A stretch of DNA of 64,000 nucleotides from Brucella sp. BE17. GTDB lineage: Bacteria > Pseudomonadota > Alphaproteobacteria > Rhizobiales > Rhizobiaceae. The DNA is taken from assembly GCF_039545455.1 (NCBI RefSeq), contig NZ_CP154468.1, positions 992,001 to 1,056,000 of the forward strand, written 5' to 3'. This document shows positions 5,143 to 31,037 of this stretch, piece after piece (position 1 is the stretch's first letter; each line of letters starts with the position of its first letter). The notes under the pieces were generated by a model, which did not search any database, was not told the origin of the DNA, and was given only the letters and a program-made list of their open reading frames with translations. Position numbers and translations under genes: made by a program.

Positions 5143-6747
5143 TTATAGCTCTATTAACATGGAACTTGGATCTAGATCATCAAATCCAATGAGAGCGGGC
5201 GAATATTCAATAATATATTGCCCATTCAAGAACGCGAGAAGCTGTTGAAACAGCCGCCCATGCGCCTCCATATGCGCGAAGTTTTCAAGTGCCGTCCAGT
5301 TGTGGGCGAGCATTGCCCCATGATCGATTCGGCTACGATCAGCCAGAAAAGCGGCACGCGGGGCATCGAAGCCAATATCTGTCAGCACAAGCTTTATCGC
5401 GTCTAGTTCGACCTTGGCGTTTTCACCACCCATGCGCAATGCTGCGATCTGGTTAATCTCACGCAGTGCCGTGCGACTGGCAGCGATGGAACCGAAAACA
5501 CTTTCGCTTGCGATAAATTGCTGTTGAACGCTCCGCAGCCCGTCATCAAGCGAAGAAGATGCGAGATCACGCAGCACTCTCAACGCCTCCACGCCAACTT
5601 GCTCGATCCGGTCCAGCCGGGGTGCAAGATTTTCGATCAAGTTCGGCTGCGATCCGACAAAGTCGACCAGCGCAATCAGTGCTGCATCTGTGCGGGCTGC
5701 GCGCCACGATGCCCAGTCCATCAGCAAAGGTCCGAGACATTGCAGAACAGCCCGGTGCGCTTCATCGACCCGTTCCCCAAGGCGTGAAAAGCCCGCGACC
5801 ATCAAAGCACGCAGAGACGGCGCACGGGAGCGGCGCTCCCCTTCTTCATGTGCCAGCGCCGCAGCCACCATCAGCGCCAGCTTGATGCCCGCGCCGGCTC
5901 CGATTGCCTGTGCCAGACCTGTGAAGACAGTATTGTCGTTCGGCGTTGCCGATGCAAGCACGACCGAGCCGATATCCTGCATAAGGCGCATCGTTGAAGG
6001 ACTGCGCGGATCCTTGTCGATGGCTGCTGAAAGATGCGCGACTGCCAGCGCAGTTCGCACAGTGCGCTGCTTCTCGTCCACCTTTCCTGCTGGCAGATCG
6101 CCACAGGATTTTTCAAGAACGCTAGCAACCAAAGCGCTGGAATTATCGAGGAACAGCGAGATTTCACTGGCAGGAAGCGAACGGACAGCAGCGTGCAGTT
6201 CCTGCGCAGCCATCTGTGCACCGGCTGAGACCAGAATACGCTCGACCTTGACCGCTGCGGGGTCACTGCCGCCAATCCGCGCTTGGGATAAAGGAGACAT
6301 ATTGGTGGCTGTCGTCAGGACGGGCCGTATTTGGGTGCGTGCCGGGGGCGCTCCCACCACCGCAGGCGTAGCGAGCTGAACATGGCGCAGCTTTTCTCCA
6401 TTGCGGTTTTCCCTGAGCGCACCAGCAATCGGGGATGCCGGTAGGGGGTAAGGCTGAGCCGAGATTTCACTTTTGGCTGTGTCACCTGTGCCGCTCTTGT
6501 CAGCGGAAACAGGCGCTTTGTTTTCCTTTGCTGGAGGTGGAGAATACGGTGGTTGTTTGGCTCCCGCCTTGGGCTGTGGTTGCGTGTTTTGGGGCGATGG
6601 CCGGTCTGTTCTCGGACGTGCCTCCGGCGGTTCGCGGCCATTGTCGGGATTTTCGATCTGCAACCAGTTGTGCTGGCTGGCATTATCGAGAAGTTCACGG
6701 GTCAATGCCGTCAAACCATCGAGTATGCGCGGAACGAAATCACTCAT
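5143..6747 (-). CDS. 534-aa protein of unknown function, last gene of the sct operon
   Basis: ATG at 6747 overlaps the sctT stop by four bases (ATGA), so it is translationally coupled to the export apparatus. Residues about 35-105 are a Pro/Lys/Gln-rich linker; residues about 165-534 are helical and Ala/Leu-rich with no visible membrane segment or catalytic motif, and the C-terminus is acidic (GFDDLDPSSMLIEL). I do not recognise the family. Because no SctP ruler or SctW gatekeeper was found elsewhere, it could fill one of those jobs or be a cytoplasmic sorting-platform protein or chaperone. That is a guess from what is missing, not from sequence similarity. Confidence 0.8.
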   Translation of the reverse strand: MSDFVPRILDGLTALTRELLDNASQHNWLQIENPDNGREPPEARPRTDRPSPQNTQPQPKAGAKQPPYSPPPAKENKAPVSADKSGTGDTAKSEISAQPYPLPASPIAGALRENRNGEKLRHVQLATPAVVGAPPARTQIRPVLTTATNMSPLSQARIGGSDPAAVKVERILVSAGAQMAAQELHAAVRSLPASEISLFLDNSSALVASVLEKSCGDLPAGKVDEKQRTVRTALAVAHLSAAIDKDPRSPSTMRLMQDIGSVVLASATPNDNTVFTGLAQAIGAGAGIKLALMVAAALAHEEGERRSRAPSLRALMVAGFSRLGERVDEAHRAVLQCLGPLLMDWASWRAARTDAALIALVDFVGSQPNLIENLAPRLDRIEQVGVEALRVLRDLASSSLDDGLRSVQQQFIASESVFGSIAASRTALREINQIAALRMGGENAKVELDAIKLVLTDIGFDAPRAAFLADRSRIDHGAMLAHNWTALENFAHMEAHGRLFQQLLAFLNGQYIIEYSPALIGFDDLDPSSMLIEL

Positions 6748-7571
6748 GGCGTCGGGCCTTCCTTTGTCACGAAAGCACGCAGGGTTTCAAACGTGCCGCC
6801 AAGATCGGCTATCTGGCCGAATAGCAACGGCATAAGGAACACGAGATAAAGAACGATCAGCAATGAAAAGAGAAGATTTTTGACCGCCAATGAGAGGTCA
6901 AACACATGCAGTTGCGGCGCCATGCGCGACAGAAAGGCCAGCATGATGTCGGCAATCAGGATGGCAATGACCAGCGGCGCGATAAGGATAACGCCGATCT
7001 GCATGATACGGTCGAGCACGTGAAGGATCGAGACAAAAGCGCCCGGATCAAGAACCGGCGTAAAACTTGCGGCCGGCCATAATTCATAGCTGCGATAGAA
7101 GCCGTCGAGCAGAAATAGAAATCCGCCCGACATGAAGAACAGCGCGATGAGACAGACGGTGAGAAGCGTGGCCGTTACAGACGATTCACCCGCTGCCAGT
7201 GGGTCAAGCAGCTGCGACATGGTCGAGCCACGTTGAAGGTCAATGAGATCGCCTGCGACTTCCGCCGCCCAGAAGGGGATGCCAAAGGCAAGACCGATAA
7301 GTGCTCCGACCACCATTTCCTTGATGATGAGGCCGGTGAGATCAAAGCTCGTCGGCTGACCGGTCATGGACAGCATGGTGAAGACCTGCGGGATCATCGG
7401 CAGGGAAATGGCAAAGGCGACGGCAGCACGGATCATGCCGGTGAGGCCAAGCCGCATGAAGGCAGGCGTCAGCATGATCATGCCGAGTGCGCGCGCAACG
7501 GCAACGGCGGATGCGGCCAAGAGCGGATAGGCAAATTCGGTAATTGCCGCTGTGATGGCTGCAAGATTCAT
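6744..7571 (-). CDS. sctT: T3SS export apparatus protein SctT
   Basis: 275 aa, ATG at 7571. It has the SctT/FliR/RhcT pattern: several hydrophobic segments, an N-terminal AVAVARALGMIMLTPAF region, the conserved IKEMVVGALIGLAFGIPFW stretch (about residues 83-102) and the DLIDLQRGSTMSQLLDP motif that follows. Length is normal for the family. SctT forms, with SctR and SctS, the helical entry pore of the export gate in the inner membrane. The order sctR-sctS-sctT is standard and the gene lies 7 bp after sctS. Confidence 0.95.
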   Translation of the reverse strand: MNLAAITAAITEFAYPLLAASAVAVARALGMIMLTPAFMRLGLTGMIRAAVAFAISLPMIPQVFTMLSMTGQPTSFDLTGLIIKEMVVGALIGLAFGIPFWAAEVAGDLIDLQRGSTMSQLLDPLAAGESSVTATLLTVCLIALFFMSGGFLFLLDGFYRSYELWPAASFTPVLDPGAFVSILHVLDRIMQIGVILIAPLVIAILIADIMLAFLSRMAPQLHVFDLSLAVKNLLFSLLIVLYLVFLMPLLFGQIADLGGTFETLRAFVTKEGPTP

Positions 7572-7578
7572 CGCTCAT

Positions 7579-7848
7579 CTACCGCGTCAGCGACGGGAAG
7601 GTGTCGAGCGAGTGGCTGGCAAGAGTACCGACCTGTGCTGCCAGAAGCGGGCCTGCGAAGATCAGCACCAGCATCACGGCGACGAGCTTGACCGCCTGTG
7701 GCAGCGTCTGGTCCTGAATCTGCGTCAATGCCTGCAACAGACCAACACTCACACCGATGATGATCGCAATGCCGAGTGCGGGCGCGGAGACGAGAAGCAC
7801 CGTCACCAGCGCCTGGTTCATCTCGTTGAGAAAGACCTCCTGCCCCAT
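7579..7848 (-). CDS. sctS: T3SS export apparatus protein SctS
   Basis: 89 aa with two transmembrane helices, the normal size for SctS/FliQ. The helix-loop-helix contains APALGIAIIIGVSVGLLQAL, then QIQDQTLPQAVKL, a family signature. It forms the pore with SctR and SctT. The ATG at 7848 is 2 bp from the sctR stop, in the conserved R-S-T order. Confidence 0.95.
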   Translation of the reverse strand: MGQEVFLNEMNQALVTVLLVSAPALGIAIIIGVSVGLLQALTQIQDQTLPQAVKLVAVMLVLIFAGPLLAAQVGTLASHSLDTFPSLTR

Positions 7849-7850
7849 CG

Positions 7851-8510
7851 CTAGCCGCCCCCGTAACTCAGAATCAGCCCATGCATCAGCCGCGACCAGC
7901 CTTCAACGGCGACGAACAGAAAAATCTTCAACGGAATGGAGATCAGTGTTGGCGACACCATCATCATGCCCATGGCCATCAGCACATTGGCCACGATCAG
8001 ATCGATCACCAGAAATGGTATATAAAGGAGAAAGCCGATTTCAAAAGCCCGCGTCAATTCAGAAGAGACGAAGGCCGGGATCAGAACGACGAGGTCTTTT
8101 TCGTTGAGACTAGCGCGCGCTTCAGGCGACCAGACGCTTTCGGTAGCCTCGATGAAAAAGGCGCGTTCACGTTCGTTGGCGAACCGCTCCAGATAATCGC
8201 GCAAAGGTACGCTGAGCGCCTCACCCGCCGAGCGTAGACCTTCGACGCTTTCAATATCAATGGGCCGGTTTTCGAGCGCCCGATACATATTGCCGACCAG
8301 CGGCGTCGTGACATAAACCGTCAAAATCAGCGCGATGCCGTAAAGCACGAGATTAGGCGGCGATTGCTGGATGCCGAGCGCATTGCGGATCAGGAACAGC
8401 ACCACCGATATTTTCAGAAAACCCGTCATGGTGACGATGGCCAGAGGCAAAAGGCCGATGGTCGAAACGACAATGATAATGGCGATGAGATTGGGTTGAA
8501 ATTCGTTCAT
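7851..8510 (-). CDS. sctR: T3SS export apparatus protein SctR
   Basis: 219 aa, full length for SctR/FliP/RhcR. It shows the N-terminal IGLLPLAIVTMTGFLKISVV helix, the LIRNALGIQQSPPNLVLYGI signature, a periplasmic helical part and the C-terminal pair with VLMAMGMMMVSPTLISIPLK. Five copies of SctR form the core of the export pore. The ATG at 8510 overlaps the sctQ stop by four bases. Confidence 0.96.
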   Translation of the reverse strand: MNEFQPNLIAIIIVVSTIGLLPLAIVTMTGFLKISVVLFLIRNALGIQQSPPNLVLYGIALILTVYVTTPLVGNMYRALENRPIDIESVEGLRSAGEALSVPLRDYLERFANERERAFFIEATESVWSPEARASLNEKDLVVLIPAFVSSELTRAFEIGFLLYIPFLVIDLIVANVLMAMGMMMVSPTLISIPLKIFLFVAVEGWSRLMHGLILSYGGG

Positions 8511-9529
8511 GTTACCTGTTCGTACGCAGCGCTGGCGGCATTGGGAAGATGTGTGACGCGAATGCCGGTGCCTTCGCCGATTTTGACGATTTCGCCCCGA
8601 CCGATCCGCTTGCCATCGCGGATGATATCGACGCGATCAGTATCGATGATTGCCAGCGGAAGCCGACTGCCCGGCACAAGCGCCTCAACCTCGGACAAAG
8701 AAATCGTGATGCGCCCGAATTCAAAGGCAAGGCAGATCGGGTTGGCTTGTTTTTTCCTGACTTTGCCATTCTTGGACGGCAACGGCTCACGCATCGGCAA
8801 AGGAGCGAGGGGACAGGCAAGAACGACACTGTTGTGATTGAACTCAACGGCCGCCGCCAGCTTGCCCTCGATCACGATTGCTGGCTGGCTGCCTTCAAGC
8901 ATGACGATATCGCCCGGTCGCAGACCATCGAGTTCGTTCAGAAACAGCTCCTGACTGCCAGCCGTGACCACAACCGCGACGCAATGTCCCGACAGATCAG
9001 GTGGTTCAGGTGCCTGCAGACGATCAAGCGCATCGGCCAGCAATCCGCCAAGCTCTTTGGGCATGGCAAGACGGCAGAGATAGCCTTCATCGCCCGAAAC
9101 AATGCGAATGCCTGTGACCAAGGACAACTTACCGGGCTTGCCCTCACCGACACGGACGGTTTCACCAAGCTGTGTTTCAATCTTCTGGCAAAGATCAAGG
9201 CAGGCAAGTTCCAGCAGAAGAGCGCGCTGCATCTCCTGTTCGTCGGCAAGCCTGCCGGAAAGATGCAACGACTGTTGCAGCCAAAAGCCCAATTCGTTCG
9301 GGATATGCAACTGGCAGATCGCATCCCCAATCTGGACGGGGAAGGAAAGCATGTCGCTTTTTGCAGGCGCTTCTTCGAAAGTGACAGAAACAGCCCGCTC
9401 GCCAAGTTTCAGCGTGATCGGCGCTCGCTTCTGCAACAATCTTTCCAAAAAATCGGAGGGCGGCGCTACCCTTTCCGGCGCAAGCAGGTTTGCAAGACGT
9501 GCCGCGCTGCCCATTGTTTCGCTCAGCAT
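8507..9529 (-). CDS. sctQ: T3SS cytoplasmic ring (C-ring) protein SctQ
   Basis: 340 aa. The last ~75 residues form a SpoA (FliN/FliM C-terminal) domain (LAFEFGRITISLSEVEALVP, then IGRGEIVKIGEGTGIRVTHL). The N-terminal two thirds is more variable and fits SctQ proteins, including a second weaker SpoA-like part near residues 200-265. SctQ builds the sorting platform under the export gate and binds SctL-SctN. Start ATG 9529 overlaps the sctO end by seven bases. An internal start that would give a separate SpoA-only product, as in Yersinia, cannot be decided by eye. Confidence 0.93.
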   Translation of the reverse strand: MLSETMGSAARLANLLAPERVAPPSDFLERLLQKRAPITLKLGERAVSVTFEEAPAKSDMLSFPVQIGDAICQLHIPNELGFWLQQSLHLSGRLADEQEMQRALLLELACLDLCQKIETQLGETVRVGEGKPGKLSLVTGIRIVSGDEGYLCRLAMPKELGGLLADALDRLQAPEPPDLSGHCVAVVVTAGSQELFLNELDGLRPGDIVMLEGSQPAIVIEGKLAAAVEFNHNSVVLACPLAPLPMREPLPSKNGKVRKKQANPICLAFEFGRITISLSEVEALVPGSRLPLAIIDTDRVDIIRDGKRIGRGEIVKIGEGTGIRVTHLPNAASAAYEQVT

Positions 9530-14089: not shown

Positions 14090-14785
14090 TCAAGGTTTTG
14101 ATTGCGTCGCCCGGTTTGAGCGAGCAACCTCTTCTGCATCGGTTCCCGGCACAGCCGAATGGGGACCGGGCGTGAAAACAACTTCCGGCGCGATGCCGCC
14201 GCGAAAAACACGAACCCGCGGGTCATCACCGGCGACGACCGGTTCGGGCTGCATGCGCTGCACCAACTGATCGACGGCCGCCACATAAGCAGGCGGACCT
14301 GACGCTGTGATGACACGGCCATCGCGGGAGCTGCGAACAGAGAAACGCGTGTCCGCCAGACCGAGTTCGCGCAGTTGCGCGATCATGATCGCACCGTTGA
14401 GCTTGCCGGCATCGAATAGGCGTGTTGCGAATTCCGTATCGGCGCTGACATGCAGAACCGACCCGTCAAAATACCACGTCAAACCATTACCTCTTGCCAG
14501 GCGCTCAAGAAACTCGCCTGCAAACTTCGATTCGACCCGACCGCGAACGCGCCCCTTCACAGCATCTGAAAGCACAACGGGCACGCCCAGATTACGCCCG
14601 AACTCCGTCAATGTGTCGCGCAAATCTTGATCGAGCACGACGTAGTCGTACGGATCGGCAAACCAGCCCGGTTCGGCAGTTGCCGTCTGCACAAGGCAGA
14701 ACAAAGCCGTAGCAAGAGCAATTGCCGCTGCAACCCTTCGATGAACGAACCTTGCCGCCCCAACCGAAAAACAAAAACGCGCCAT
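14090..14785 (-). CDS. sctC1: Split secretin, periplasmic N0-N1 half (NolW/RhcC1-like)
   Basis: 231 aa. A signal peptide (VAAAIALATALFCLVQTATA) precedes the T3SS-type N0 domain (YDYVVLDQDLRDTLTEFGRN, SDAVKGRVRGRV, FLERLARGNGLTWYFDG) and the N1 domain (GPPAYVAAVDQLVQRM). The protein stops there with no secretin barrel, exactly as NolW in rhizobia, where the secretin is encoded by two genes. The other half is at 19330-20688 on the opposite strand. It should form the periplasmic collar of the outer-membrane ring. First gene of the leftward operon. Confidence 0.9.
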   Translation of the reverse strand: MARFCFSVGAARFVHRRVAAAIALATALFCLVQTATAEPGWFADPYDYVVLDQDLRDTLTEFGRNLGVPVVLSDAVKGRVRGRVESKFAGEFLERLARGNGLTWYFDGSVLHVSADTEFATRLFDAGKLNGAIMIAQLRELGLADTRFSVRSSRDGRVITASGPPAYVAAVDQLVQRMQPEPVVAGDDPRVRVFRGGIAPEVVFTPGPHSAVPGTDAEEVARSNRATQSKP

Positions 14786-15103
14786 TACACCCGATCCGAC
14801 AATTCTTGCAGCCGTAAAACAATTGGCAGATGAGAAGTTAAGTTCGAGTATTTCATATGCTGCTTATAACTTATCGCCCAACACGCTTGAAGAACAGCAA
14901 TATGAAATTTTCATGACAGTGTATAAATGAATCCTGTTACCCTCTCATGACGAACAGTGACACAAAAGTTTCACAATTTGCCCGTTGATTTATTTTATCG
15001 CTCAATAAATTGTTCTCCTTCGTTGGCGATAATTCTAATCTTATCCTCCGACGAGCGTGCGAAGTTTTGAGATTGCAATTCTTGATTGAACTGGAGACCA
15101 TCA
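14786..15103. promoter_or_regulatory. Divergent promoter region of the two T3SS operons
   Basis: 318 bp between the starts of the nolW-like gene (minus) and the second 53-aa gene (plus). AT-rich relative to the genes, with tracts such as TTGATTTATTTTATCG and AATTCTAATCTTATCC. It must hold both promoters. I found no convincing tts box, hrp box or other known T3SS operator by eye. No regulator gene for the T3SS is visible in the window. Confidence 0.5.
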
Positions 15104-15265
15104 ATGGCAGCTGTTACACCAACCTCCGGCGGCGGCGCTGACGCCGCGATCAGCAAGATGGAGGCCGCATTCGATGCAGCAATCGAAAAGTCGGCCAAGA
15201 TCACTGAAATCACGACCGAGAAGAAGACCGAACTCGACGCGACCAAGCAACGCCCGCAGAACTGA
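15104..15265 (+). CDS. 53-aa putative T3SS needle/pilus subunit, copy 2
   Basis: ATG at 15104 preceded by GGAG, TGA at 15263-15265. It begins MAAVTPTSGGGADAAISKM and ends KTELDATKQRPQN, almost identical to the protein encoded at 4691-4852 on the other strand. It is the first gene of the rightward operon, upstream of sctD, and is followed by a long imperfect hairpin. Two copies in opposite operons plus the fused tail at 3217-3681 point to a structural or secreted protein needed in quantity. Function is inferred only. Confidence 0.75.
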   Translation: MAAVTPTSGGGADAAISKMEAAFDAAIEKSAKITEITTEKKTELDATKQRPQN

Positions 15266-15308
15266 TTCCTTCGGTTCGGGCGGACAGGCCCGGCCATATT
15301 TGGACTCT

Positions 15309-15354
15309 TTCACGGATACGGCAGCGGATTTTCGGTCGCCGTATTCGCTGTGAA
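15309..15354 (+). terminator. Hairpin between the 53-aa gene and sctD
   Basis: TTCAC-GGATACGGC pairs with GCCGTATTC-(GCT)-GTGAA, an imperfect stem of about 14 bp, 44 bp after the stop of the 53-aa gene. There is no clear T-run. It could act as a partial terminator or RNA-stability element, matching the terminator behind copy 1. Confidence 0.4.
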
Positions 15355-15377
15355 CCGGATCCGATGAGAGGTGACAC

Positions 15378-16346
15378 TTGTCTCTGGCAAAGTTGACTAT
15401 ATCCGCCGCCAAGCCTCGCTTGCCCGCGATTGCGGTATTGAACGCTGCCGCCCCGGGCGCGCTAGCGCTTGAGGTTCTTTCCGGCATTCACAGTGGCATA
15501 CGTGCTCCGATCGAGGGTACGGCATGCGCTATCGGATCAGCGACAGGCTGCGACGTGGTTCTGGTTGACGAGGGTATCGCGCCCGAACATCTGCGGTTGC
15601 GCTTTTATGGTCGGCTGGTTGCAATCGACGCTGTCGGCGGAGTTGTTACGATCGAAGGTCGCTCAGTTCTCGGACATGGATATGGGTGCAAGGTCAATCT
15701 GCCGGTAACGCTTGGTGTCGGCGAAACCCGCTTGCGCATCGGGCGCGGGAGCGGACAAACCCGCGCGCTGCCACGTTGGGCAATCTATACGGGCGGCGCG
15801 CTGGCACTCGTCGCTGTAGCCCTCCTCGCTTTTCAGACAGGGTTTTCCCAACTAATGCCGCGACAAGCCATGGCGCATGGCGAACCGGCTCCGGCTCTTT
15901 TGACCCCAGCTTCGACCAAGCCGGAGACGGCTGAACCCGCCACCGCAGCCTTCTCCGATGAAAGGGTAACAAACGCGCTTCTGCAGGAGCTGGAAAAGGC
16001 AGATCTTGCCACGCTCAAGCTCGATGCAGATGGCCGCAGGATTGTGGTTTCCGGTGAGATTCCGGCCCAGCGCATGGCTGATTGGGGAAAAATCCAGCGC
16101 AGTTTCGACCGAATGCATGGTGGGCGGTATATCCTGACCAGCCTAGTCAACGCCGCAGCCGTCGCCAATGCACCAAGCTTTACGTTTCAGGCCGTCTGGT
16201 TCGGCAAAAATCCCTATGTGATCGATGCCCGCGGCGAGCGTCGCTATCCGGGCGCTGCATTTCAAGACGGCTGGATGCTCAAGTCAATTGAACCCGGTGC
16301 CGTTTCGGTCGTCCGCGGCAATGAAGAATTCAAGCTGACATTATGA
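15378..16346 (+). CDS. sctD: T3SS inner-membrane ring protein SctD
   Basis: 322 aa. The start is a TTG at 15378 with GAGAGG about eight bases before it; no ATG fits better. Residues about 25-125 form an FHA-like cytoplasmic domain, WAIYTGGALALVAVALLAF (about 135-153) is the single membrane helix, and the rest is periplasmic with a BON-like ring domain (DADGRRIVVSGEIPAQRM). This is the SctD/YscD/PrgH layout and corresponds to Y4yQ in rhizobial systems. It pairs with SctJ in the inner-membrane ring and with SctK in the cytoplasm. Confidence 0.88.
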   Translation: MSLAKLTISAAKPRLPAIAVLNAAAPGALALEVLSGIHSGIRAPIEGTACAIGSATGCDVVLVDEGIAPEHLRLRFYGRLVAIDAVGGVVTIEGRSVLGHGYGCKVNLPVTLGVGETRLRIGRGSGQTRALPRWAIYTGGALALVAVALLAFQTGFSQLMPRQAMAHGEPAPALLTPASTKPETAEPATAAFSDERVTNALLQELEKADLATLKLDADGRRIVVSGEIPAQRMADWGKIQRSFDRMHGGRYILTSLVNAAAVANAPSFTFQAVWFGKNPYVIDARGERRYPGAAFQDGWMLKSIEPGAVSVVRGNEEFKLTL

Positions 16347-16365
16347 TGTGTGATCTGCGTTCAGG

Positions 16366-16773
16366 ATGGCTCGCGTGAGCGACGTAATACGGCCAGTGCC
16401 TGTTGAGCGGCCCGGAGAGCGTCAACGCCTCGACCGTGCGCTCACCGAAGCCGGACGGCGCGCGGATGCGGTCAGCCGCGCACAGATCGCAGCTTTCGAG
16501 GCGGCGCTACGGATACGTCGGCGTGGCAGCACGGCACAAGGCGCATCGCTGCGGCGCGAAATCGACGCACTGACCATGCCGGAGATTTCCGATCCCGGCA
16601 TATTCAATGCGCCGCGCACGATGGCGCTGCTCGATCACGTCATCGAAGAAATCCTGCCTTCACTCGACACCAGTGAAGACGTCACCTCCATCGCTATGGC
16701 TATGTTGAAAGAAGAGATCGAGCGCCGACGCGATCTGGAAGAGCGGTTAATAGCCGAGGGAGATCCGGTATGA
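16366..16773 (+). CDS. 135-aa T3SS-operon protein of unknown function
   Basis: ATG at 16366, stop overlapping the next start by four bases. Helical, very Arg/Glu-rich and charged, with no signal peptide or membrane segment. I do not recognise the family. Its place between sctD and a small TPR protein ahead of sctV suggests a cytoplasmic chaperone or export-gate regulator; YscX/YscY-type pairs next to SctV are a possible analogy. That analogy is inference from position only. Confidence 0.75.
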   Translation: MARVSDVIRPVPVERPGERQRLDRALTEAGRRADAVSRAQIAAFEAALRIRRRGSTAQGASLRREIDALTMPEISDPGIFNAPRTMALLDHVIEEILPSLDTSEDVTSIAMAMLKEEIERRRDLEERLIAEGDPV

Positions 16774-17099
16774 AACGCGACAATGCCGATTCTGCCGAGC
16801 TGATGCATTCGCTTGGCTATCTCTATATGCGAAGCCACCAGCAGAGCCGGGCACTGGTTTTTCTGCTCATCGCCAACCGCATTGCACCCGAAGATGCTGG
16901 CATACTGCGAACACTAATTGCCGCTCTCATCGAAAACGGTGCAGGGGAGCGGGCGCTTGGTGCGCTTGATCGGCTAAGTGAACTCGAAGACGCACCATCG
17001 GTGCATCTCCTGCGCGCCCGTGCCTACTGGATTCTCGACGAAAAAAACGAAGCCCGCCGCTGTTTTCGCACCTATGTCGCATTGCGGAGGGCGGCTTGA
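16770..17099 (+). CDS. Small TPR protein, SctY/SctG-type chaperone candidate
   Basis: 109 aa with about two and a half tetratricopeptide-like helix pairs (LMHSLGYLYMRSHQQSRALV, then LLRARAYWILDEKNEARRCF). Small TPR proteins next to sctV act as chaperones for early or middle substrates (YscY, SycD/LcrH classes). It overlaps the gene before it and sctV by four bases each, so all three are translationally coupled. The partner may be the 135-aa protein just upstream or the 53-aa subunit. Domain call is fair; partner is speculative. Confidence 0.8.
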   Translation: MKRDNADSAELMHSLGYLYMRSHQQSRALVFLLIANRIAPEDAGILRTLIAALIENGAGERALGALDRLSELEDAPSVHLLRARAYWILDEKNEARRCFRTYVALRRAA

Positions 17100-19264
17100 T
17101 GAACGGCATTCTCGGCAGGCTGAACGCGCTCGCCCGCGCCGCCTCCTACCGCTCCGACATCGTGGTCGCAAGCTTCATGATGCTGGCGGTCGTGATGATC
17201 GTGATCCCGCTTCCAACCCTTCTCGTCGATGCGCTGATTGCCATCAATATCGCGCTCAGCCTGCTCGTGCTTATCGTTGCCTTCTATATCGGAAGGCCAG
17301 GCGATTTTTCCGCGCTGCCGCCGATCATTCTACTGGCAACACTGTTCAGGCTGGCACTGTCGATCACCACGACAAGGCTCATCCTGCTTCATGCCGACGC
17401 TGGCAACATCGTGGCGACTTTCGGCCGCTTCGTGATCGGCGGCGAGGTGGTGGTCGGCCTTGTAGTCTTTCTGATCATCACGGCCGCACAATTCATCGTC
17501 ATTACCAAGGGTGCGGAACGCGTTGCGGAAGTGGCGGCCCGCTTTACTCTCGACGCCATGCCCGGCAAGCAGATGGCGATCGACAACGATCTGCGCAATG
17601 GCGATATCGACCAGACGGAAGCGCGTGCACGCCGTTCGCGGCTGGAACGCGAAAGCCAGCTTTATGGCGCGATGGACGGCGCCATGAAATTCGTGAAGGG
17701 TGACGCCATCACCGGGCTGATCATCGTTTTCGTCAATCTCGTCGGCGGGCTTCTGATCGGCATGATGAGCAGGGGCATGAGCTTTTCCGACGCAGCGCAC
17801 ACCTATTCTCTTCTGACGGTAGGCGACGGCCTGATCGCACAGATACCAGCGCTTCTGATCTCCATCGGTGCCGGTACGGTCGTCACCCGCGTCGCCTCTG
17901 AAACTGAAAGTGATCTTGGAACAGAGATCTTTCGCCAACTCGGATCAAGCGACCGCGCGCTTGCGCTTGCGGCGGCTATCCTTCTCGCCGCAGCTTTCGT
18001 CCCCGGCTTTCCGACGCTAATCTTCCTTGCAGTCGGTGGTCTTTTTGCGGGCATTGCCTTCATGATCCATCGCAGAAACCGCAAACCGGAAGCCCAGACG
18101 GACTCTACTGCGCTTCAGGCAGTCGACACGCAGGAGGCGGAGGCCGACGATAGCATAGTGATTTCCAGCGGACCGACGCGTTATCGCGTGGTCGCTCATG
18201 TTGGTATCAACCTTGCGCAAGCCATCTGGCCGGAACGGTTCCGGTTGGAAACAGACAGGCTGCGCGATGTGTTAAAAGACGATCTCGGCCTTGAAATACC
18301 GGCGGTCGAAATGCGCGTTGCGCCCGAACTCGCTCCTGAGCGATTCCGCGTTGATCTTGAAGGGGTACCCATCGTTGAGTACGAGCTGCCGCCTGCAAGC
18401 CTGATGCTCGATGACGATCCGATGCATCTCGATCTGCTTCAGATTGCCTATCAGGACGGCCCACCGTTGCCCGGTGGGCGGCGAAGCTTGTGGGTAAGCG
18501 AGGAATACGCCAATACGCTTGAGGAAGCGGGAATTGGTGTTCTCGATCCTGCGGCAGTACTCTCCCGGGCACTTTCCCAACTGCTGCGGCGCTATGCAGC
18601 GCATTTCATCGGCATTCAGGAAACGCGCGAATTGCTGACCCGAATGGAAGGCGAATATGGCGAGCTCGTCAAGGAAGCCACGCGCGCGGTGCCGCTCAAC
18701 AAGCTTTCGGATATTCTGCGCCGTCTGGTCGAGGAAAACGTGCCGGTGGCCAATATGCGCGCCGTTCTGGAAGCGCTGGTCGAATGGGGTGGCCGTGAGG
18801 CCGACACGCTTCTTCTGACCGAGCGGGTGCGCGGCGCGCTTGCCCGCCAGATCTGCCATCGCCATGCCCAGTTCAACCGCGTGGTACCCGCCTATGTCAT
18901 GGCGCGCAGTACCGAGGAAATGGTGCGCGATGCCATCCAGACCACGGGCGTCGGCAAGATGCTGGCCTTGCCCGAAGATGCCTCACGCGCCATCCTGTCC
19001 CAATTACGGCGTGACCGGGATGACAACACGCAATGGCCTGACGCCGTCGTTCTGACATCCATGGATATCCGCCGTGTGGTGCGTAATTTTCTGCTGCGCA
19101 ACGAGATCGACATTCCGGTGCTTTCCTATCAGGAGATCGCCCCGGAATATTCCGTGCAATCGTTGATGTCGATCTCGCTTCATCCACAACCGCGCCAGCG
19201 GGCAATCAAATCTCCGCCGAAAATGGAAGAACTGTCTGGCAGTAGCGCTGCCCGTCTCAACTGA
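17096..19264 (+). CDS. sctV: T3SS export gate protein SctV
   Basis: 722 aa, normal for SctV/FlhA/RhcV. The N-terminal half has about eight membrane helices with the FHIPEP-like signature (GRPGDFSALPPIILLATLFR) and the cytoplasmic loop FTLDAMPGKQMAID then LERESQLYGAMDGAMKFVKG. The C-terminal cytoplasmic half starts near residue 350. The nonameric ring selects substrates and couples proton flow to export. Start is ATG 17096 or 17099, overlapping the TPR gene stop. No defect seen. Confidence 0.97.
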   Translation: MMNGILGRLNALARAASYRSDIVVASFMMLAVVMIVIPLPTLLVDALIAINIALSLLVLIVAFYIGRPGDFSALPPIILLATLFRLALSITTTRLILLHADAGNIVATFGRFVIGGEVVVGLVVFLIITAAQFIVITKGAERVAEVAARFTLDAMPGKQMAIDNDLRNGDIDQTEARARRSRLERESQLYGAMDGAMKFVKGDAITGLIIVFVNLVGGLLIGMMSRGMSFSDAAHTYSLLTVGDGLIAQIPALLISIGAGTVVTRVASETESDLGTEIFRQLGSSDRALALAAAILLAAAFVPGFPTLIFLAVGGLFAGIAFMIHRRNRKPEAQTDSTALQAVDTQEAEADDSIVISSGPTRYRVVAHVGINLAQAIWPERFRLETDRLRDVLKDDLGLEIPAVEMRVAPELAPERFRVDLEGVPIVEYELPPASLMLDDDPMHLDLLQIAYQDGPPLPGGRRSLWVSEEYANTLEEAGIGVLDPAAVLSRALSQLLRRYAAHFIGIQETRELLTRMEGEYGELVKEATRAVPLNKLSDILRRLVEENVPVANMRAVLEALVEWGGREADTLLLTERVRGALARQICHRHAQFNRVVPAYVMARSTEEMVRDAIQTTGVGKMLALPEDASRAILSQLRRDRDDNTQWPDAVVLTSMDIRRVVRNFLLRNEIDIPVLSYQEIAPEYSVQSLMSISLHPQPRQRAIKSPPKMEELSGSSAARLN

Positions 19265-19329
19265 AAAACGCAACGAGATTCAAGCCATGCACGGCAACTG
19301 AATCCGCAAGACTTAAACAGGGTGACTGC

Positions 19330-20688
19330 GTGAGGGAATATCGAAGAATGGCGAGGCGGAACAGTATCATGTCGAGAGCAGGAATCCTGCTGTTGTTTCT
19401 CGCAATCTGGTGCGGGACATCGCCTGGACACGCACGGTCGTTCAAGATCGATGCACAATCGGGTGAATCCCTGACATTACCACTCGGTCAGGGACGGATC
19501 ATCCGCTTCGACCGGCCAGTGGAATCGGTTTTCATGGCCGACGCCAGGATTGCCGATGTGCGTGTTGTCTCCCCCGGTGTTGTCTATGTCTATGCACTGA
19601 AAGCGGGCCGGACCAATCTCATTGCCTTAAGCCCGGAAGGTGGAGCCAAGGCGAGCGTCGATTTCTGGGTCGTATCCGATCCGCGGCCGATCAAGGAAGC
19701 GCAGCGCGCCGCCCAGCCCGACAGCACCATCGATGTGACACTTTTCGGTGATGTTCCGTCCGCCAAAGGCCATGCCCGTACCATGCAGGAAGCAGCCGAC
19801 ACCGAAGCCGCGCTACAGGCCTATGCGCCACCAGCGCGGCCAGCCATCAACAATACCACGATCAATGGCGCAAATCAGGTCAATATCCGTGTGCGCTTTG
19901 CCGAGGTCTCGCGCAATCAGCTTTTGCGATACGGCGTCACCTGGGACGCTTTCGTCAACGCAGGCTCCTTTTCCTTTGGCTTCGTTTCCGGCGGAGCCAT
20001 GGCCGCAAACGCTGCTTCCGGCGCGTCGAATGCGGTTAGCGCCGGTGCAGCATGGAACGGCAACCGTGTTGATGTGCTTCTCGAAGCTTTGCAGGCAAAC
20101 GGTATTCTGACGGTTCTGGCCGAGCCTAACATTACGGCGGTAACCGGAGAAACCGCGAGCTTCCTTGCAGGCGGTGAAATTCCGGTGCCGGTTCCAGTCA
20201 CCAATGAGCAAGTTGGCATCGAATACAAGCAATACGGCGTGTCGCTTCTCTTCACACCAACGCTTCTGCCCAATGGCCGGATATCAATGCGCGTGCGTCC
20301 CGAGGTCAGCAGCCTTTCGGCCAGTGGCATGGTGAACATCGCCAATCTTCAGGTTCCAGCCCTTCAGGTCCGCCGTGCCGATACCATCGTGGAAGTGGGA
20401 ACCGGCCAGACCTTCGCCATAGCAGGGCTTTTCCAACGCAGTGTCTCCAAGGACATAGAGAAAGTGCCGGTTGTGGGCGACATGCCGGTCCTCGGCAACC
20501 TCTTCAAGTCGAAGCGCTTCCAGCGCAATGAAACCGAGCTTGTGATCCTGATCACACCCTATCTTGTCGAGCCGGTGCGCGAACGCAGCCTCAAGACACC
20601 GCTCGACAGCCCGGCAGGTGCCCTCTCTGGTCCCGTTGCCAGTACGCGTACAAAAATCAACAAGGGGTTCGGTTTTTATGTCGATTAA
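19330..20688 (+). CDS. sctC2: Secretin, C-terminal barrel half; resembles Tad-pilus CpaC/RcpA (RhcC2 position)
   Basis: About 446-452 aa; the start may be GTG 19330 or ATG 19348. After a signal peptide (AGILLLFLAIWCG) there is a pilus-assembly-type N-domain (LPLGQGRIIRFDRPVESVFM, SPGVVYVYALKAGRTNLI), then VNIRVRFAEVSRNQLLRYGV, then the secretin core (GEIPVPVPV, LQVRRADTIVEVGTGQTFAI, VPVVGDMPVLGNLFKSKRFQ, ETELVILITPYLVEPV). This order and these motifs are those of CpaC/RcpA secretins of Tad (Flp) pili rather than YscC-type. Together with the NolW-like protein (14090-14785) it should build the outer-membrane ring. The next gene overlaps it and is CpaD-like. Confidence 0.92.
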   Translation: MREYRRMARRNSIMSRAGILLLFLAIWCGTSPGHARSFKIDAQSGESLTLPLGQGRIIRFDRPVESVFMADARIADVRVVSPGVVYVYALKAGRTNLIALSPEGGAKASVDFWVVSDPRPIKEAQRAAQPDSTIDVTLFGDVPSAKGHARTMQEAADTEAALQAYAPPARPAINNTTINGANQVNIRVRFAEVSRNQLLRYGVTWDAFVNAGSFSFGFVSGGAMAANAASGASNAVSAGAAWNGNRVDVLLEALQANGILTVLAEPNITAVTGETASFLAGGEIPVPVPVTNEQVGIEYKQYGVSLLFTPTLLPNGRISMRVRPEVSSLSASGMVNIANLQVPALQVRRADTIVEVGTGQTFAIAGLFQRSVSKDIEKVPVVGDMPVLGNLFKSKRFQRNETELVILITPYLVEPVRERSLKTPLDSPAGALSGPVASTRTKINKGFGFYVD

Positions 20689-21115
20689 GTTCCAGCCAAT
20701 CGTCCGGCACTTTGTTCTGGCTGTTACATTTTGCGCGCTTACAGCCTGTCAGAGCCAGCCAGAACGCGATCCCCTGCCCTATTCGCCCAATTATCACATG
20801 ACGACTGCCGGGAGCGGCAATATGGTGCGCAAGGGATATGACAAGCAGCCCAATACGCATGGTCGCCTTGTTCCCGATGCCTGCGTCAAACCCGACGTCG
20901 TCGAGGACCCGTTATATTTGCCGCCCGGCTGCGCCAACAATCTCAATCTTCAGATGATGGTGGAACGTCAGAGCGATCTTGTTGATGGACGCACGACAGG
21001 TCCGGCCATGGCGGCACCGGTGGTGCGCGCGGCACGCCGTGTCATCGACGGCGAACCGCCAAAGGGCGACGCTGCAACGAGGGAAAGCCTCAATACGACC
21101 GGATCGATGGATTAA
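20678..21115 (+). CDS. CpaD-like lipoprotein in the T3SS operon
   Basis: 145 aa counted from the ATG at 20678 (MSIKFQPIVRHF), which overlaps the secretin stop by 11 bases; a longer frame from 20564 is rejected as it lies inside the secretin gene. The signal peptide ends in a lipobox (ALTACQSQ). The remainder has the CpaD pattern, PPGCANNLNLQMMVERQSDL then a Pro-rich segment and RAARRVIDGEPP. CpaD is an outer-membrane or periplasmic helper of the Tad pilus secretin. Its presence directly after a CpaC-like secretin here suggests it serves as pilotin or ring partner of the T3SS secretin; that role is inferred. Confidence 0.75.
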   Translation: MSIKFQPIVRHFVLAVTFCALTACQSQPERDPLPYSPNYHMTTAGSGNMVRKGYDKQPNTHGRLVPDACVKPDVVEDPLYLPPGCANNLNLQMMVERQSDLVDGRTTGPAMAAPVVRAARRVIDGEPPKGDAATRESLNTTGSMD

Positions 21116-21131
21116 GGATCAGGCGTTTGAT

Positions 21132-21157
21132 ACTTCAGGAACCAACGCCACTGAAGT
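21132..21157. terminator. Possible bidirectional hairpin between convergent genes
   Basis: ACTTCAG and CTGAAGT, 12 nt apart, form a 7-bp stem in the 50-bp gap between the convergent CpaD-like and TPR lipoprotein genes. No T-run; weak candidate. Confidence 0.3.
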
Positions 21158-21165
21158 GTTCGGGA

Positions 21166-21969
21166 TCATCTTGCCCCGGAGGCAAGCAGACCGATGGAGC
21201 GTGCGCGCGCCGATGGCGACCTGATCGCACGCACCTTGCGCGCCTCTGCAAGGAATGCCCGCTTTTCCGCCGCAGGATAATCCGGCATCGCCACATCAGC
21301 CGCCTCCCTGTCCCGCCCCCCAAGCACCAGAACCAGCATCAGATTGCGGAAATGACGCGCCTCGGCACGCGGAGACTGAGTGACGGCGCGCATCGTTGTG
21401 ACGGCGGCGTCAGTCTTGCCCGACAATACCTGCGCCAACGCAAGATTGGATTGCGTGTCGAGGCTGGCGGGATCTTGGTGTCTCGCCTGGCTAAAGGCCG
21501 CTTCCGCGCCACTTCCATCGCCGATCAGGATGAGCGCGGTGCCAAGGCGATTATAGGCGGTCGAGGATTTGACGATGGGGGCCGCGACGGCGAGCGTTCG
21601 CGCAGCACTTTCGACCTCGTTCGACTGCAATTGTGCTGTTCCCAAACCCAAAAGCGCGCGGCCATTATTGGGATCTTTTGCCAGAGCCGTGCGGAACGAT
21701 TTGGCTGCCTGCTCCGGTTGCCCGGATGCAAGCTGCGCGTCACCCAGACGAATATGCGCACCGATCGTATCGCTGGAAACACTCGCCGCCCGCTCATAGA
21801 GCGAAGCCGCCGTGGCCTTGTCGCCGCGCCGGTCGATATCCTGCGCAAGGGCTATGAGACGCGCTTCATCGCCTTTCGGCCCACTGGTCAGTGCGTTGTC
21901 AGAAGCCGTTGTGCAAGCCGCCAGAGCCATACACGTTACAATCATGGCACTGGTGGAACGGTGTCGCAT
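21166..21969 (-). CDS. TPR lipoprotein, TadD-like
   Basis: 267 aa, ATG 21969. A lipoprotein signal (MALAACTT lipobox) is followed by about five tetratricopeptide repeats from residue 37 to 230 (for example AHIRLGDAQLASGQPEQAAK and ALLGLGTAQLQSNEVESAAR). TadD of Tad pilus loci has this same architecture and helps secretin assembly as a pilotin-like factor. The gene is transcribed against the operon and divergently from sctU, so it has its own promoter in the 125-bp gap at 21970-22094. With the CpaC-like and CpaD-like genes it completes a Tad-like outer-membrane trio. Confidence 0.8.
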   Translation of the reverse strand: MRHRSTSAMIVTCMALAACTTASDNALTSGPKGDEARLIALAQDIDRRGDKATAASLYERAASVSSDTIGAHIRLGDAQLASGQPEQAAKSFRTALAKDPNNGRALLGLGTAQLQSNEVESAARTLAVAAPIVKSSTAYNRLGTALILIGDGSGAEAAFSQARHQDPASLDTQSNLALAQVLSGKTDAAVTTMRAVTQSPRAEARHFRNLMLVLVLGGRDREAADVAMPDYPAAEKRAFLAEARKVRAIRSPSARARSIGLLASGAR

Positions 21970-22094: not shown

Positions 22095-23144
22095 GTGAGT
22101 GAAACCAGCGAAGAGAAAAGTCTTCCCGCTTCTGACAAAAAAATCCGCGACGCGCGCGACAAGGGACAGGTTGCCAAAAGTCAGGATCTGGTTGCCGGGA
22201 CGGCGATGATCGCCTCGACCGGCTACCTCGCTGTGGTCCTTCCTGACCAGAAAAGCAAGGTCGAGGCTTTGATAAACGTCATCGCGCAGCGCGTGCATGT
22301 CGACCCCTTTAGGGAAGTGTGGCCCGATGTACTGACCCTTGCAGGGAGCATCATGACCAGCCTTGCCGTGCCGTTGCTTGCAGTAACGGTGGCGGCAATA
22401 GTCCTTACCAATCTCGTGGTCATGCGCGGTTTTCTCTTTTCCACCGAACCGATCACGCCCAATTTTGAACATATCAACCCGATTTCCGGTGCGAAACGCC
22501 TTTTTTCCATGCGCAGCGTGGTCGAGTTCCTGAAATCGCTCGTCAAGATCATTGCACTGGCAACCGCCTTCTTCATCGTCTTTCGTGGCGGCATTCAATC
22601 ATTGCTGCAATCGTCGGCCTGCGGCGCATCCTGCATCACCAATACGTTTTCAGCGATGCTGCAACCGCTGATCGTCACCGCCGTCATCGCCTTCTTTCTG
22701 GTGGGGCTCATCGATGTTCTCGTTCAGCAATGGCTTTTCAAGCGCGATATGAAAATGACCAAGAGCGAACAGAAGCGGGAAAGAAAAGATTCCGATGGAG
22801 ATCCTGCCATTCTCCAGCAGCGCCAGAAACAGCGTCGTGAAATGCAGACATTCGCCACCAAGACGGGGCTACTCAATGCATCGCTTCTTGTGGCCGCGCC
22901 TGATGGCTGGACCGTTGGCATCCGTTATGTGCGCGGCGAAACGCCAGTTCCGATGATTGTCTGCCGTGGCAGCCCCGAGCAATCGCGTACCATGATCACC
23001 GAGGCTCTTCTGACCGATATTCCGGTGATCCGCGACAAAAACCTTGCCGCTACAATCGCCCGCACGGCGCGCACCGGGGAACCGGTTCCCGAAGCGAGCT
23101 TCCAGCGTGTTGCCGATCTTCTTGTGGCAGCAAGGCTTATCTGA
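22095..23144 (+). CDS. sctU: T3SS export apparatus switch protein SctU, lacking the NPTH motif
   Basis: 349 aa, GTG start at 22095 after GGGGGAAC. Four hydrophobic segments occupy residues about 30-210, followed by the cytoplasmic linker (KMTKSEQKRERKDSDGDP) and the C-terminal domain with IRYVRGETPVP. Known SctU/FlhB proteins cut themselves between Asn and Pro of NPTH in the pattern VANPTHIAIG. Here the aligned segment is VAAPDGWTVG: codons at 22896-22907 read Ala268-Pro-Asp-Gly. The reading frame is intact on both sides, so this is not a frameshift. Autocleavage should be impossible by the usual Asn cyclisation. Family identity is certain; consequences are inferred. Confidence 0.95.
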   Translation: MSETSEEKSLPASDKKIRDARDKGQVAKSQDLVAGTAMIASTGYLAVVLPDQKSKVEALINVIAQRVHVDPFREVWPDVLTLAGSIMTSLAVPLLAVTVAAIVLTNLVVMRGFLFSTEPITPNFEHINPISGAKRLFSMRSVVEFLKSLVKIIALATAFFIVFRGGIQSLLQSSACGASCITNTFSAMLQPLIVTAVIAFFLVGLIDVLVQQWLFKRDMKMTKSEQKRERKDSDGDPAILQQRQKQRREMQTFATKTGLLNASLLVAAPDGWTVGIRYVRGETPVPMIVCRGSPEQSRTMITEALLTDIPVIRDKNLAATIARTARTGEPVPEASFQRVADLLVAARLI

Positions 23145-30776: not shown

Positions 30777-31037
30777 TCGATCCTTTTCTAAGGAAATCTC
30801 AATTGGTTGAAAGCGTCCAGCATCATGTAGAAAGGAAAGCTCGCTTGACGCCGGAATGACAGAGTTCAATGTCACTTTTATAACATTTTGTGTTAATTAC
30901 CGCAGAACTATCCGGCTTATGTCACTGTAAGGCGTATTAATGTTATTAATTTTACATTCTAACTATTAAGAGCACCCTTGAGGAATGATGTCCGCAAAAA
31001 CGCATTTCTCTTGCCTTTTTCAGTCCGGAAATGAGAA

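What the first reader, a model, noticed from the sequence alone, without database searches (positions are those of the whole stretch)
14090..21969. T3SS outer-membrane ring seemingly built from a NolW half plus a Tad-pilus-type secretin, CpaD-like and TadD-like lipoproteins
The N0-N1 half (14090-14785) is T3SS-type, while the barrel half (19330-20688) has the motif order of CpaC/RcpA secretins (RADTIVEVGTGQTFAI, VVGDMPVLGNLFKS, ETELVILITPYLVEPV). The next gene overlaps it and encodes a CpaD-like lipoprotein, and 50 bp further lies a TadD-like TPR lipoprotein. No tadA, tadB, tadC, flp or cpaB gene is present, so this is not a pilus locus. It looks like capture of a CpaC-CpaD-TadD module by an injectisome. 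Separate recruitment of secretins by T3SS lineages, with a Tad link for Rhizobiales, has been proposed in comparative work as I recall; the co-captured lipoproteins are the less familiar part.
Basis: partly seen in the sequence, partly recalled or inferred. Interest (0 to 1): 0.8.

Follow-up and report, generated by a model that had tools for sequence, protein, structure and literature searches.

The report
Injectisome wearing a pilus outer ring
This is a bacterial protein-injection machine whose outer-membrane pore and two helper lipoproteins come from a different machine, the Tad pilus; the swap is largely published, but the helper in this branch and the tail that probably docks it were not described in the papers we found.

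Summary
Within a T3SS cluster lie a NolW/RhcC1-type half (14090-14785), a Tad-type secretin RhcC2 (19330-20688), a short CpaD-type lipoprotein overlapping it by 11 nt, and a TadD-type TPR lipoprotein. Profiles, trees and context support the Tad origin. Genome searches found no second Tad-type secretin and no ordinary CpaD or CpaB, so this is not a pilus locus.

Most of the idea is published: RhcC2 from Tad (Abby and Rocha 2012), a CpaD-like lipoprotein and the TadD-like, RhcC2-supporting Y4yS in Mesorhizobium loti (Mercante 2015). The window is a further Rhc-II member, in a probably Brucellaceae genome.

What I did not find in print: (1) Rhc-II, said in 2015 to lack y4yS, carries its own TadD-type lipoprotein; (2) RhcC2 keeps the Tad-like C-terminal tail (..GFYVD; loose motif in 30 of 32 RhcC2-II, 7 of 7 RhcC2-I, 1 of 14 T2SS/T4P, 0 of 7 ordinary T3SS secretins), the part that docks TadD in the solved RcpA-TadD complex; (3) secretin and pilotin trees both separate Rhc-I from Rhc-II (AU p 0.005-0.03 on four secretin data sets with the N-part, but 0.17 and 0.32 on the barrel alone; 0.042 for TadD), suggesting two captures or a swap.

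The parts
14090..14785 (-). RhcC1/NolW (SctC N0-N1 half), 231 aa, signal peptide (by eye)
   Evidence: PF21304 31.4 bits, PF03958 E 8e-4 (below cut-off), TIGR02516 86 bits over model 2-151 of 463; C1 profile in Rhc-II loci
15378..16346 (+). SctD/Y4yQ, inner-ring protein, the expected partner of the N0 ring
   Evidence: PF23893 Y4YQ_C 61.6 bits, Yop-YscD_cpl 47.4 bits
16770..17099 (+). SctY-type T3SS chaperone (TPR), 109 aa, not the TadD-like protein
   Evidence: NF052415 81.4 bits, cut-off 70
17096..19264 (+). SctV/RhcV export gate
   Evidence: homologous to the gene annotated sctV in L018; tree
19330..20688 (+). RhcC2, Tad-type secretin, 452 aa
   Evidence: PF13629 60 bits, PF00263 148 bits; best solved match RcpA 8odn; inside Tad in the tree
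20665..20685 (+). C-terminal tail GFGFYVD of RhcC2, proposed pilotin-docking peptide
   Evidence: conserved tail against a varying linker; docking role taken from RcpA-TadD, PMC10499894
20678..21115 (+). shortened CpaD-type outer-membrane lipoprotein, 145 aa; lipobox Cys24, conserved Cys69 and Cys85
   Evidence: PF09476 E 1.3e-4; Tad-only CpaD profile E 2e-9; 90 proteins incl. the window's own; invariant C24, C69, C85 in 40 sequences
21166..21969 (-). TadD-type TPR lipoprotein, proposed pilotin of RhcC2, 267 aa, Cys19
   Evidence: Tad-only TadD profile 131 bits against 33 with a PilW profile; model pLDDT 90.1, all-helical; PilW/PilF among the best folds
22095..23144 (+). SctU/RhcU export switch
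   Evidence: PF01312 266 bits
9523..13794 (-). T3SS core block: SctO-like, SctN, SctL, SctK-like, SctJ, SctI-like genes
   Evidence: SctJ TIGR02544 221.7 bits; SctN homologous to the annotated FliI/YscN ATPase of L018; SctO, SctL, SctK and SctI names by position, recalled from Rhc clusters
6744..9526 (-). SctT, SctR and SctQ-like genes
   Evidence: PF01311, PF00813, PF01052

Best explanation
This is an Rhc-II type T3SS whose outer-membrane ring is a Tad (type IVc pilus) outer-membrane module: CpaC-type secretin (RhcC2), a shortened CpaD lipoprotein and a TadD pilotin lipoprotein, joined to the T3SS basal body by the leftover N0-N1 half of the old secretin (RhcC1/NolW). Proposed working: the lipid-anchored TadD-type protein binds the last residues of RhcC2 (..GFYVD) in its TPR groove, carries it to the outer membrane and lets it oligomerise; the CpaD-type lipoprotein stays on the barrel as an outer ring partner; NolW couples the barrel to SctD. 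Shown here: homology, conserved order, co-occurrence, tail conservation. Inferred: docking, piloting, ring geometry, NolW as adaptor (the last also proposed by Abby and Rocha).
For: Secretin tree: RhcC2 inside Tad, ordinary SctC apart at 100/100. A CpaD profile from 19 Tad-locus CpaDs, run over 8818 frames, finds the T3SS lipoproteins at E 3e-7 to 2e-25; the next frames are at E 0.021 (behind the Tad-like secretin of L080) and 0.027. A TadD profile from 17 Tad-locus TadDs gives 112-152 bits to 13 of 14 Rhc-II proteins and 64 to the 14th, against 46-78 bits to 7 PilW proteins and at most 26.5 to seven SctY; the best single stretch of five generic TPR proteins is 78 bits against 131 for the window's. 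CpaD-like in 39 of 40 and TadD-type in 37 of 40 C2-bearing loci, both in 0 of 5 C2-less T3SS loci. Tail motif counts. The column of Asn175 is Asn in 36 of 36 TadD-type proteins and 1 of 7 PilW, and the spacing fits P131/D139/V142 of P. aeruginosa TadD at an offset of 36 (residues from PMC10499894). In M. loti loss of Y4yS lowers RhcC2 (PMC4311626). In Caulobacter CpaD is the partner of CpaC (PMC13170226).
Against: Pfam and NCBIfam CpaD matches lie below their curated cut-offs (22.3 against 31.1; 15.3 against 94.45), and only the lipobox region and the C-terminal part match. TPR profiles are promiscuous: two long generic TPR proteins score 144 and 164 bits over their whole length, and the Rhc-II protein of L028 (62 bits best stretch) lies below one of them. 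The basic residue of the TadD groove (R79 in P. aeruginosa; probably the K/R at W111 in 14 of 17 Tad proteins) is Thr, Ser or Val in the 14 Rhc-II proteins. The RhcC2 tail ends in K or R in a sister group (L013, L014, L096-L098, L105, L106, L108). In Caulobacter the TadD orthologue CpaO is dispensable (PMC13170226). One C2-bearing locus (L113) lacks both lipoproteins. The CpaD-like fold could not be modelled (pLDDT 56.2). No experiment.
Confidence: 0.82

Rival explanations
1. One capture only: the common ancestor of Rhc-I and Rhc-II took a Tad outer-membrane module once, and the Rhc-II copies then changed fast (lost the BON match, shortened CpaD, diverged TadD), which makes them look separate.
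For: The published scenario (PMC3459982). SctV puts Rhc-I and Rhc-II together, 89/92, not starred. Barrel-only data do not reject one RhcC2 clade: AU p 0.32 and 0.17, and place RhcC2-I beside other Tad rows than the full-length trees do. Rhc-II sits on a long stem (0.91 and 1.06).
Against: RhcC2-I and RhcC2-II are not one clade in any of six secretin trees (two in 68, 91); AU p 0.015, 0.017, 0.029 (N-part) and 0.0054 (77 rows). The TadD proteins reject one clade at p 0.042, and there too the Rhc-I protein sits with Skermanella/Azospirillum, 91/84.
Confidence: 0.42
2. The two lipoproteins are unrelated to Tad: the CpaD match is a lipobox plus a chance motif and the TPR protein is an ordinary outer-membrane TPR lipoprotein.
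For: Sub-threshold Pfam and NCBIfam matches; generic TPR proteins also score on TadD profiles; no TadD in the rows shown of the solved-structure searches by sequence or fold.
Against: E-value gap with a Tad-only CpaD profile; full-length Pfam CpaD match, 70 bits, for the gene at the same position in the Rhc-I cluster of CCBAU 83666; TadD clade apart from PilW at 100/100; co-occurrence 39 and 37 of 40 against 0 of 5.
Confidence: 0.07
3. A Tad pilus remnant or hybrid that still exports a pilin next to the T3SS.
For: Secretin, CpaD and TadD are the outer-membrane half of a Tad machine.
Against: At E 0.001 no PF09476 or PF16976 match in the whole genome and only two PF00263 places, one of them this gene; the neighbours are T3SS genes. 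Pilin and motor families were not searched genome-wide.
Confidence: 0.03

Closest known systems
Sinorhizobium fredii NGR234 T3SS-II (pNGR234b; Rhc-II)
   Same: Same order of the genes located: C1 divergent, then SctY-SctV-C2-CpaD-like-TadD-like-SctU (L016)
   Different: TadD-like gene on the same strand there, on the opposite strand here; tail GYGFYVE against GFGFYVD
Mesorhizobium loti MAFF303099 T3SS (Rhc-I: RhcC2, mlr8762, Y4yS)
   Same: Tad-type secretin, CpaD-like and TadD-like lipoproteins; loss of Y4yS lowers RhcC2 (PMC4311626, passages)
   Different: In the Rhc-I loci examined here CpaD is long and the Y4yS-type lipoprotein lies beside SctV, mostly away from RhcC2; here CpaD is short and the 267-aa TadD lies beside RhcC2
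Pseudomonas aeruginosa RcpA-TadD (Tad pilus)
   Same: Best solved-structure match of the secretin; C-terminal tail plus TPR lipoprotein
   Different: Part of a pilus machine; no NolW; the binding Arg of TadD has no conserved equivalent in Rhc-II
Caulobacter crescentus CpaC-CpaD outer-membrane complex
   Same: Lipoprotein encoded directly behind the secretin (PMC13170226, passages)
   Different: CpaD there is 225 aa with a predicted OmpA-like N-terminal part; the Rhc-II proteins match only the lipobox region and the C-terminal part
Pseudomonas syringae T3SS-2 (HrcIIC1, HrcIIC2, PSPPH_2523)
   Same: Split secretin and an opposite-strand TPR gene between the halves (PMC3574062), as in L019, L050 and L158-L163
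   Different: The passages read do not call the TPR protein a pilotin or TadD; I did not test PSPPH_2523 itself

Membership tests
Rhc-type T3SS (Rhc-II) | SctC split in RhcC1 (N0-N1) and RhcC2 (barrel) | tested here: met
Rhc-type T3SS (Rhc-II) | SctV groups with Rhc-II including NGR234 pNGR234b | tested here: met
   L016, L021, L030 and W in one group of 20, 93/91
Rhc-type T3SS (Rhc-II) | Rhc-type SctD C-terminal domain (PF23893) | tested here: met
   61.6 bits against cut-off 27
Tad secretin (CpaC/RcpA) | barrel inside the Tad clade | tested here: met
   inside a 47-row Tad plus RhcC2 group, 100/99
Tad secretin (CpaC/RcpA) | PF13629 N-terminal domain | tested here: met
   60.2 bits
Tad secretin (CpaC/RcpA) | BON domain before the barrel (reported by Abby and Rocha) | tested here: not met
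   none at E 1 in W, none at E 0.1 in the four other RhcC2-II scanned; present in 3 of 4 RhcC2-I (one below cut-off) and 2 of 2 Tad. Filed as Tad-derived, not as a CpaC
CpaD | PF09476 above the curated cut-off | tested here: not met
   22.3 against 31.1; filed as CpaD-derived and shortened
CpaD | lipobox and CpaD C-terminal motif, gene directly behind the secretin | tested here: met
TadD | lipoprotein with TPR superhelix nearer to Tad TadD than to PilW | tested here: met
TadD | binds the secretin C-terminus and is needed for its assembly | not testable with these tools
   tail conserved, no binding assay
Tad pilus locus | Tad inner-membrane and pilin genes present (tested for CpaB/RcpC only) | tested here: not met
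   PF16976 0 matches in the genome at E 0.001; CpaF, TadB/C and Flp not searched genome-wide
YscC/HrcC-type SctC | one protein carrying N0-N1 and barrel, barrel in the SctC clade | tested here: not met

The most novel reading that the evidence does not exclude
Within one T3SS lineage the same three-part Tad outer-membrane kit (secretin, CpaD, TadD pilotin) was installed twice from different Tad donors, or installed once and then swapped whole, because the secretin's docking tail and its pilotin must travel together; the kit, not the secretin, is the unit of exchange. Locus L099, with an SctV near Rhc-II but an Rhc-I type secretin and pilotin, would be such a mosaic caught after the swap.
Probability: 0.5. 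Interest if true: 0.68.

Novelty: new member of a known kind. Interest (0 to 1): 0.45.

Why it matters
Gazi (2015, PMC4500985, read whole) asked why a non-conserved, system-specific pilotin serves a conserved secretin, and noted that subgroup II lacks y4yS. The answer suggested here is that Rhc-II carries its own TadD-type lipoprotein, that RhcC2 keeps the matching tail, and that the pair was inherited as a kit. That makes an open question (how Rhc-II secretins reach the outer membrane) testable with one deletion and one truncation, and gives a case of modular exchange between pilus and injectisome.

Tried and rejected
Sequence search of solved structures with the TadD-like protein, a Tad TadD and a TadD alignment showed TPR proteins of other kinds; no TadD entry was in the rows shown there or in the fold searches, which excludes nothing. 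The CpaD-like model was poor (pLDDT 56.2, pTM 0.26) and was not searched. TIGR02516 over 60 genomes gave no match over its cut-off, so ordinary SctC came.

Results against my reading: barrel-only AU tests not significant; in the barrel-only trees RhcC2-I sits beside L026/L047 (94/85) or L044/L045 (69/28), not beside Skermanella/Azospirillum. The CpaD tree keeps Rhc-I CpaD as a group (89/91) but not beside Skermanella/Azospirillum; Rhc-II CpaD is too short and was not placed. Whole-protein TPR scores are not specific. Of 5500 frames of 100 aa or more in the files, 88 end in the loose motif and 63 in the strict one; these include the secretins and their duplicates and were not sorted further.

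Rows dropped before trees: L015 and L019 (interrupted) from all; L007, later also L009, L010, L012, and L159 (near-copies); L025, L026, L027, L040, L080, L086 (long or odd Tad rows) and L113; L091 and L092; L128, L137, L146, L156, L157 (duplicates). The TadD tree used 14 Rhc-II rows, not all that were at hand (the f72 loci L158-L163 came later), and left out the short TadDs L023, L052, L027 and L114; four rows were trimmed. The Tad secretins added were picked by likeness to RhcC2-I.

Asn175 and TadD D139 are equated only by pattern (offset 36: P131 to P167, D139 to N175, V142 to L178); I had no P. aeruginosa TadD sequence to align, and the basic residue does not fit.
Full report
What is there. 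The window (G000:C2:992001-1056000, in one of two contigs of a 3.89 Mb genome) holds a T3SS cluster: SctQ/R/T-like genes, SctJ and SctN on the minus strand, SctD, SctY, SctV and SctU on the plus strand. The four genes of the finding sit in it. The NolW half carries the SPI-1-type N0 domain and the first third of the SctC model. The barrel half carries PF13629 and the secretin domain. The next gene overlaps it by 11 nt and encodes a 145-aa lipoprotein. The third encodes a 267-aa TPR lipoprotein on the opposite strand, tail to tail with it.

Where it is. The nearest RhcC2 proteins listed are in a Hyphomicrobiales MAG (93%) and Ochrobactrum chromiisoli (91%). The host is probably in or near Brucellaceae; I did not prove this.

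Secretin origin. In a 68-row tree of secretin cores, RhcC2 lies within the Tad group and seven ordinary SctC form a separate branch (100/100). The best solved structure is RcpA of the Tad system. At E 0.001 the genome has two secretin-domain places, this one and a 735-aa open frame on the other contig, which falls outside the Tad group, and no match to CpaB/RcpC or to the CpaD family. The locus's own short CpaD is also missed at that threshold, so only excludes ordinary CpaD.

CpaD-type lipoprotein. Pfam places 30 residues on the end of the CpaD profile, under the cut-off. A profile from 19 Tad-locus CpaDs only, run over 8818 open frames, finds the short lipoprotein behind each RhcC2-II then at hand, at E 3e-7 to 2e-12 (W: 2e-9, scored on the frame from 20564); the next frames are at E 0.021 (behind the Tad-like secretin of L080) and 0.027. 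In the Rhc-I cluster of S. fredii CCBAU 83666 the gene in the same place is a full CpaD (profile 1-200, 70 bits) and is annotated so. Rhc-II proteins match the lipobox region and Pfam profile positions about 153-198. In Caulobacter the N-terminal part of CpaD is predicted to be OmpA-like and to bind peptidoglycan (PMC13170226, passages). My inference is that Rhc-II lost the wall anchor and kept the membrane anchor and C-terminal part. Forty aligned proteins share Cys24, Cys69 and Cys85, possibly one disulphide.

TadD-type lipoprotein. A profile from 17 Tad-locus TadDs scores W at 131 bits and the 14 Rhc-II proteins tested at 64-152 bits (13 of 14 at 111.8 or more), five Y4yS-type proteins at 91-172 bits and seven PilW proteins at 46-78 bits. 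Whole-length scores of long generic TPR proteins reach 164 bits, but their best single stretch is 78 or less; three short TPR proteins of Tad loci left out of the profile reach only 52-58. In the tree TadD-type proteins separate from PilW at 100/100. The structure model is confident (pLDDT 90.1) and all-helical; PilF and PilW, the pilotins of type IV pili, are among its best natural fold matches, as are other TPR proteins, so fold alone does not settle function.

The tail. In P. aeruginosa the last four RcpA residues bind TadD and are needed for assembly (PMC10499894, passages). The loose motif G[FYL]x[VILMYF][DEQNKR] at the very end is present in 30 of 32 RhcC2-II, 7 of 7 RhcC2-I, 17 of 19 Tad secretins with a CpaD gene, 21 of 25 further Tad secretins, 1 of 6 other Tad-like, 1 of 14 T2SS/T4P and 0 of 7 SctC. 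With a strict acidic end the counts are 20 of 32, 6 of 7, 9 of 19, 19 of 25, 0 of 6, 0 of 14 and 0 of 7. Many RhcC2-II rows are near-copies; but between the window's group, the Halomonas-like L050 and the f72 loci (L158, L160-L163) the linker before the tail is replaced while FGF[YHN][VML] stays. I read this as selection for pilotin docking. The Arg that holds the RcpA carboxylate has no conserved equivalent in Rhc-II, so details must differ.

Conservation of the kit. Of 45 T3SS loci or genomes with an SctV gene (duplicates L002 and L090 removed, near-copies kept), 40 have a Tad-type secretin. CpaD-like is found in 39 of these 40 and a TadD-type lipoprotein in 37 (interrupted in L015); of the three without the latter, L003 ends behind the CpaD gene, L109 is cut inside SctV, and L113 lacks both lipoproteins. 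The five loci without such a secretin (L049, L110, L111, L112, L165) show neither; L110 and L111 are near-copies and 15-20 kb around each was read. P. syringae T3SS-2 has a TPR gene in the same place (PMC3574062), and the protein searches reach P. syringae-group and other Pseudomonas members.

One capture or two. SctV joins Rhc-I and Rhc-II (89/92). RhcC2 does not: RhcC2-I sits beside Skermanella and Azospirillum Tad secretins in full-length trees (100/99; 99/94 with two further Tad rows; 98/59), RhcC2-II elsewhere, and holding them together is rejected at p 0.015, 0.017, 0.029 and 0.0054, but not on the barrel alone (0.32 and 0.17), where the neighbours of RhcC2-I also differ. TadD proteins show the same split, Y4yS beside Skermanella and Azospirillum TadD (91/84), p 0.042. 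The CpaD tree does not show that neighbourhood. BON is seen in 3 of 4 RhcC2-I and 0 of 5 RhcC2-II. L099 has an SctV at the base of Rhc-II (84/80, long branch) but an Rhc-I secretin and pilotin. This fits two captures, or one followed by a whole-kit swap; a long Rhc-II stem keeps one capture alive.

What is already known. RhcC2 as a Tad secretin and RhcC1 as the T3SS remnant and linker to SctD: PMC3459982 (passages and section 10). CpaD-like mlr8762 and TadD-like Y4yS with a mutant phenotype: PMC4311626 (passages). Commentary, read whole: PMC4500985. y4xK as putative lipoprotein and Rhc-II as then known only in sinorhizobia among rhizobia: PMC3973906 (passages). A TadD-type pilotin in Rhc-II, the shared tail, and two captures did not turn up in searches, which cover open-licence PubMed Central papers only; beyond the papers named I saw listings, and no supplements.

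Verdict. As a locus it is a new member of a known kind. What raises it is the pilotin of Rhc-II with its matching tail, and the case for the kit as unit of exchange.

Noticed in passing
window 23166-23786: An L,D-transpeptidase gene follows SctU; the same neighbour is seen in Phyllobacterium sp. 628 (L029) and Ensifer adhaerens pD (L030), so it may belong to the Rhc-II system.
   Followed up: no
window 27168-30875: A 1235-aa autotransporter whose passenger carries an endonuclease/exonuclease/phosphatase domain.
   Followed up: no
window 23903-27040: A 1045-aa protein with a LysM domain near its N-terminus and no other family match over a cut-off, two genes from SctU; possible secreted or translocator-type protein.
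   Followed up: no
L028: A conjugative Klebsiella aerogenes plasmid carries T3SS genes (SctJ, SctN, a C1 half), an HrpK-domain gene and a TadD-type TPR protein; no Tad-type secretin in the stretch read.
   Followed up: no
L113 (G449): A T3SS with a C1 gene directly followed by a 566-aa secretin only distantly Tad-like, no CpaD or TadD gene found in the stretch, very long branch.
   Followed up: partly
L099 (G623): Apparent mosaic T3SS: SctV near Rhc-II, secretin and TadD of Rhc-I type.
   Followed up: partly
L015 and L019: Secretin (and in L015 SctV and the TadD-type gene, in L019 SctU) reading frames are interrupted in these copies; left as they are.
   Followed up: no
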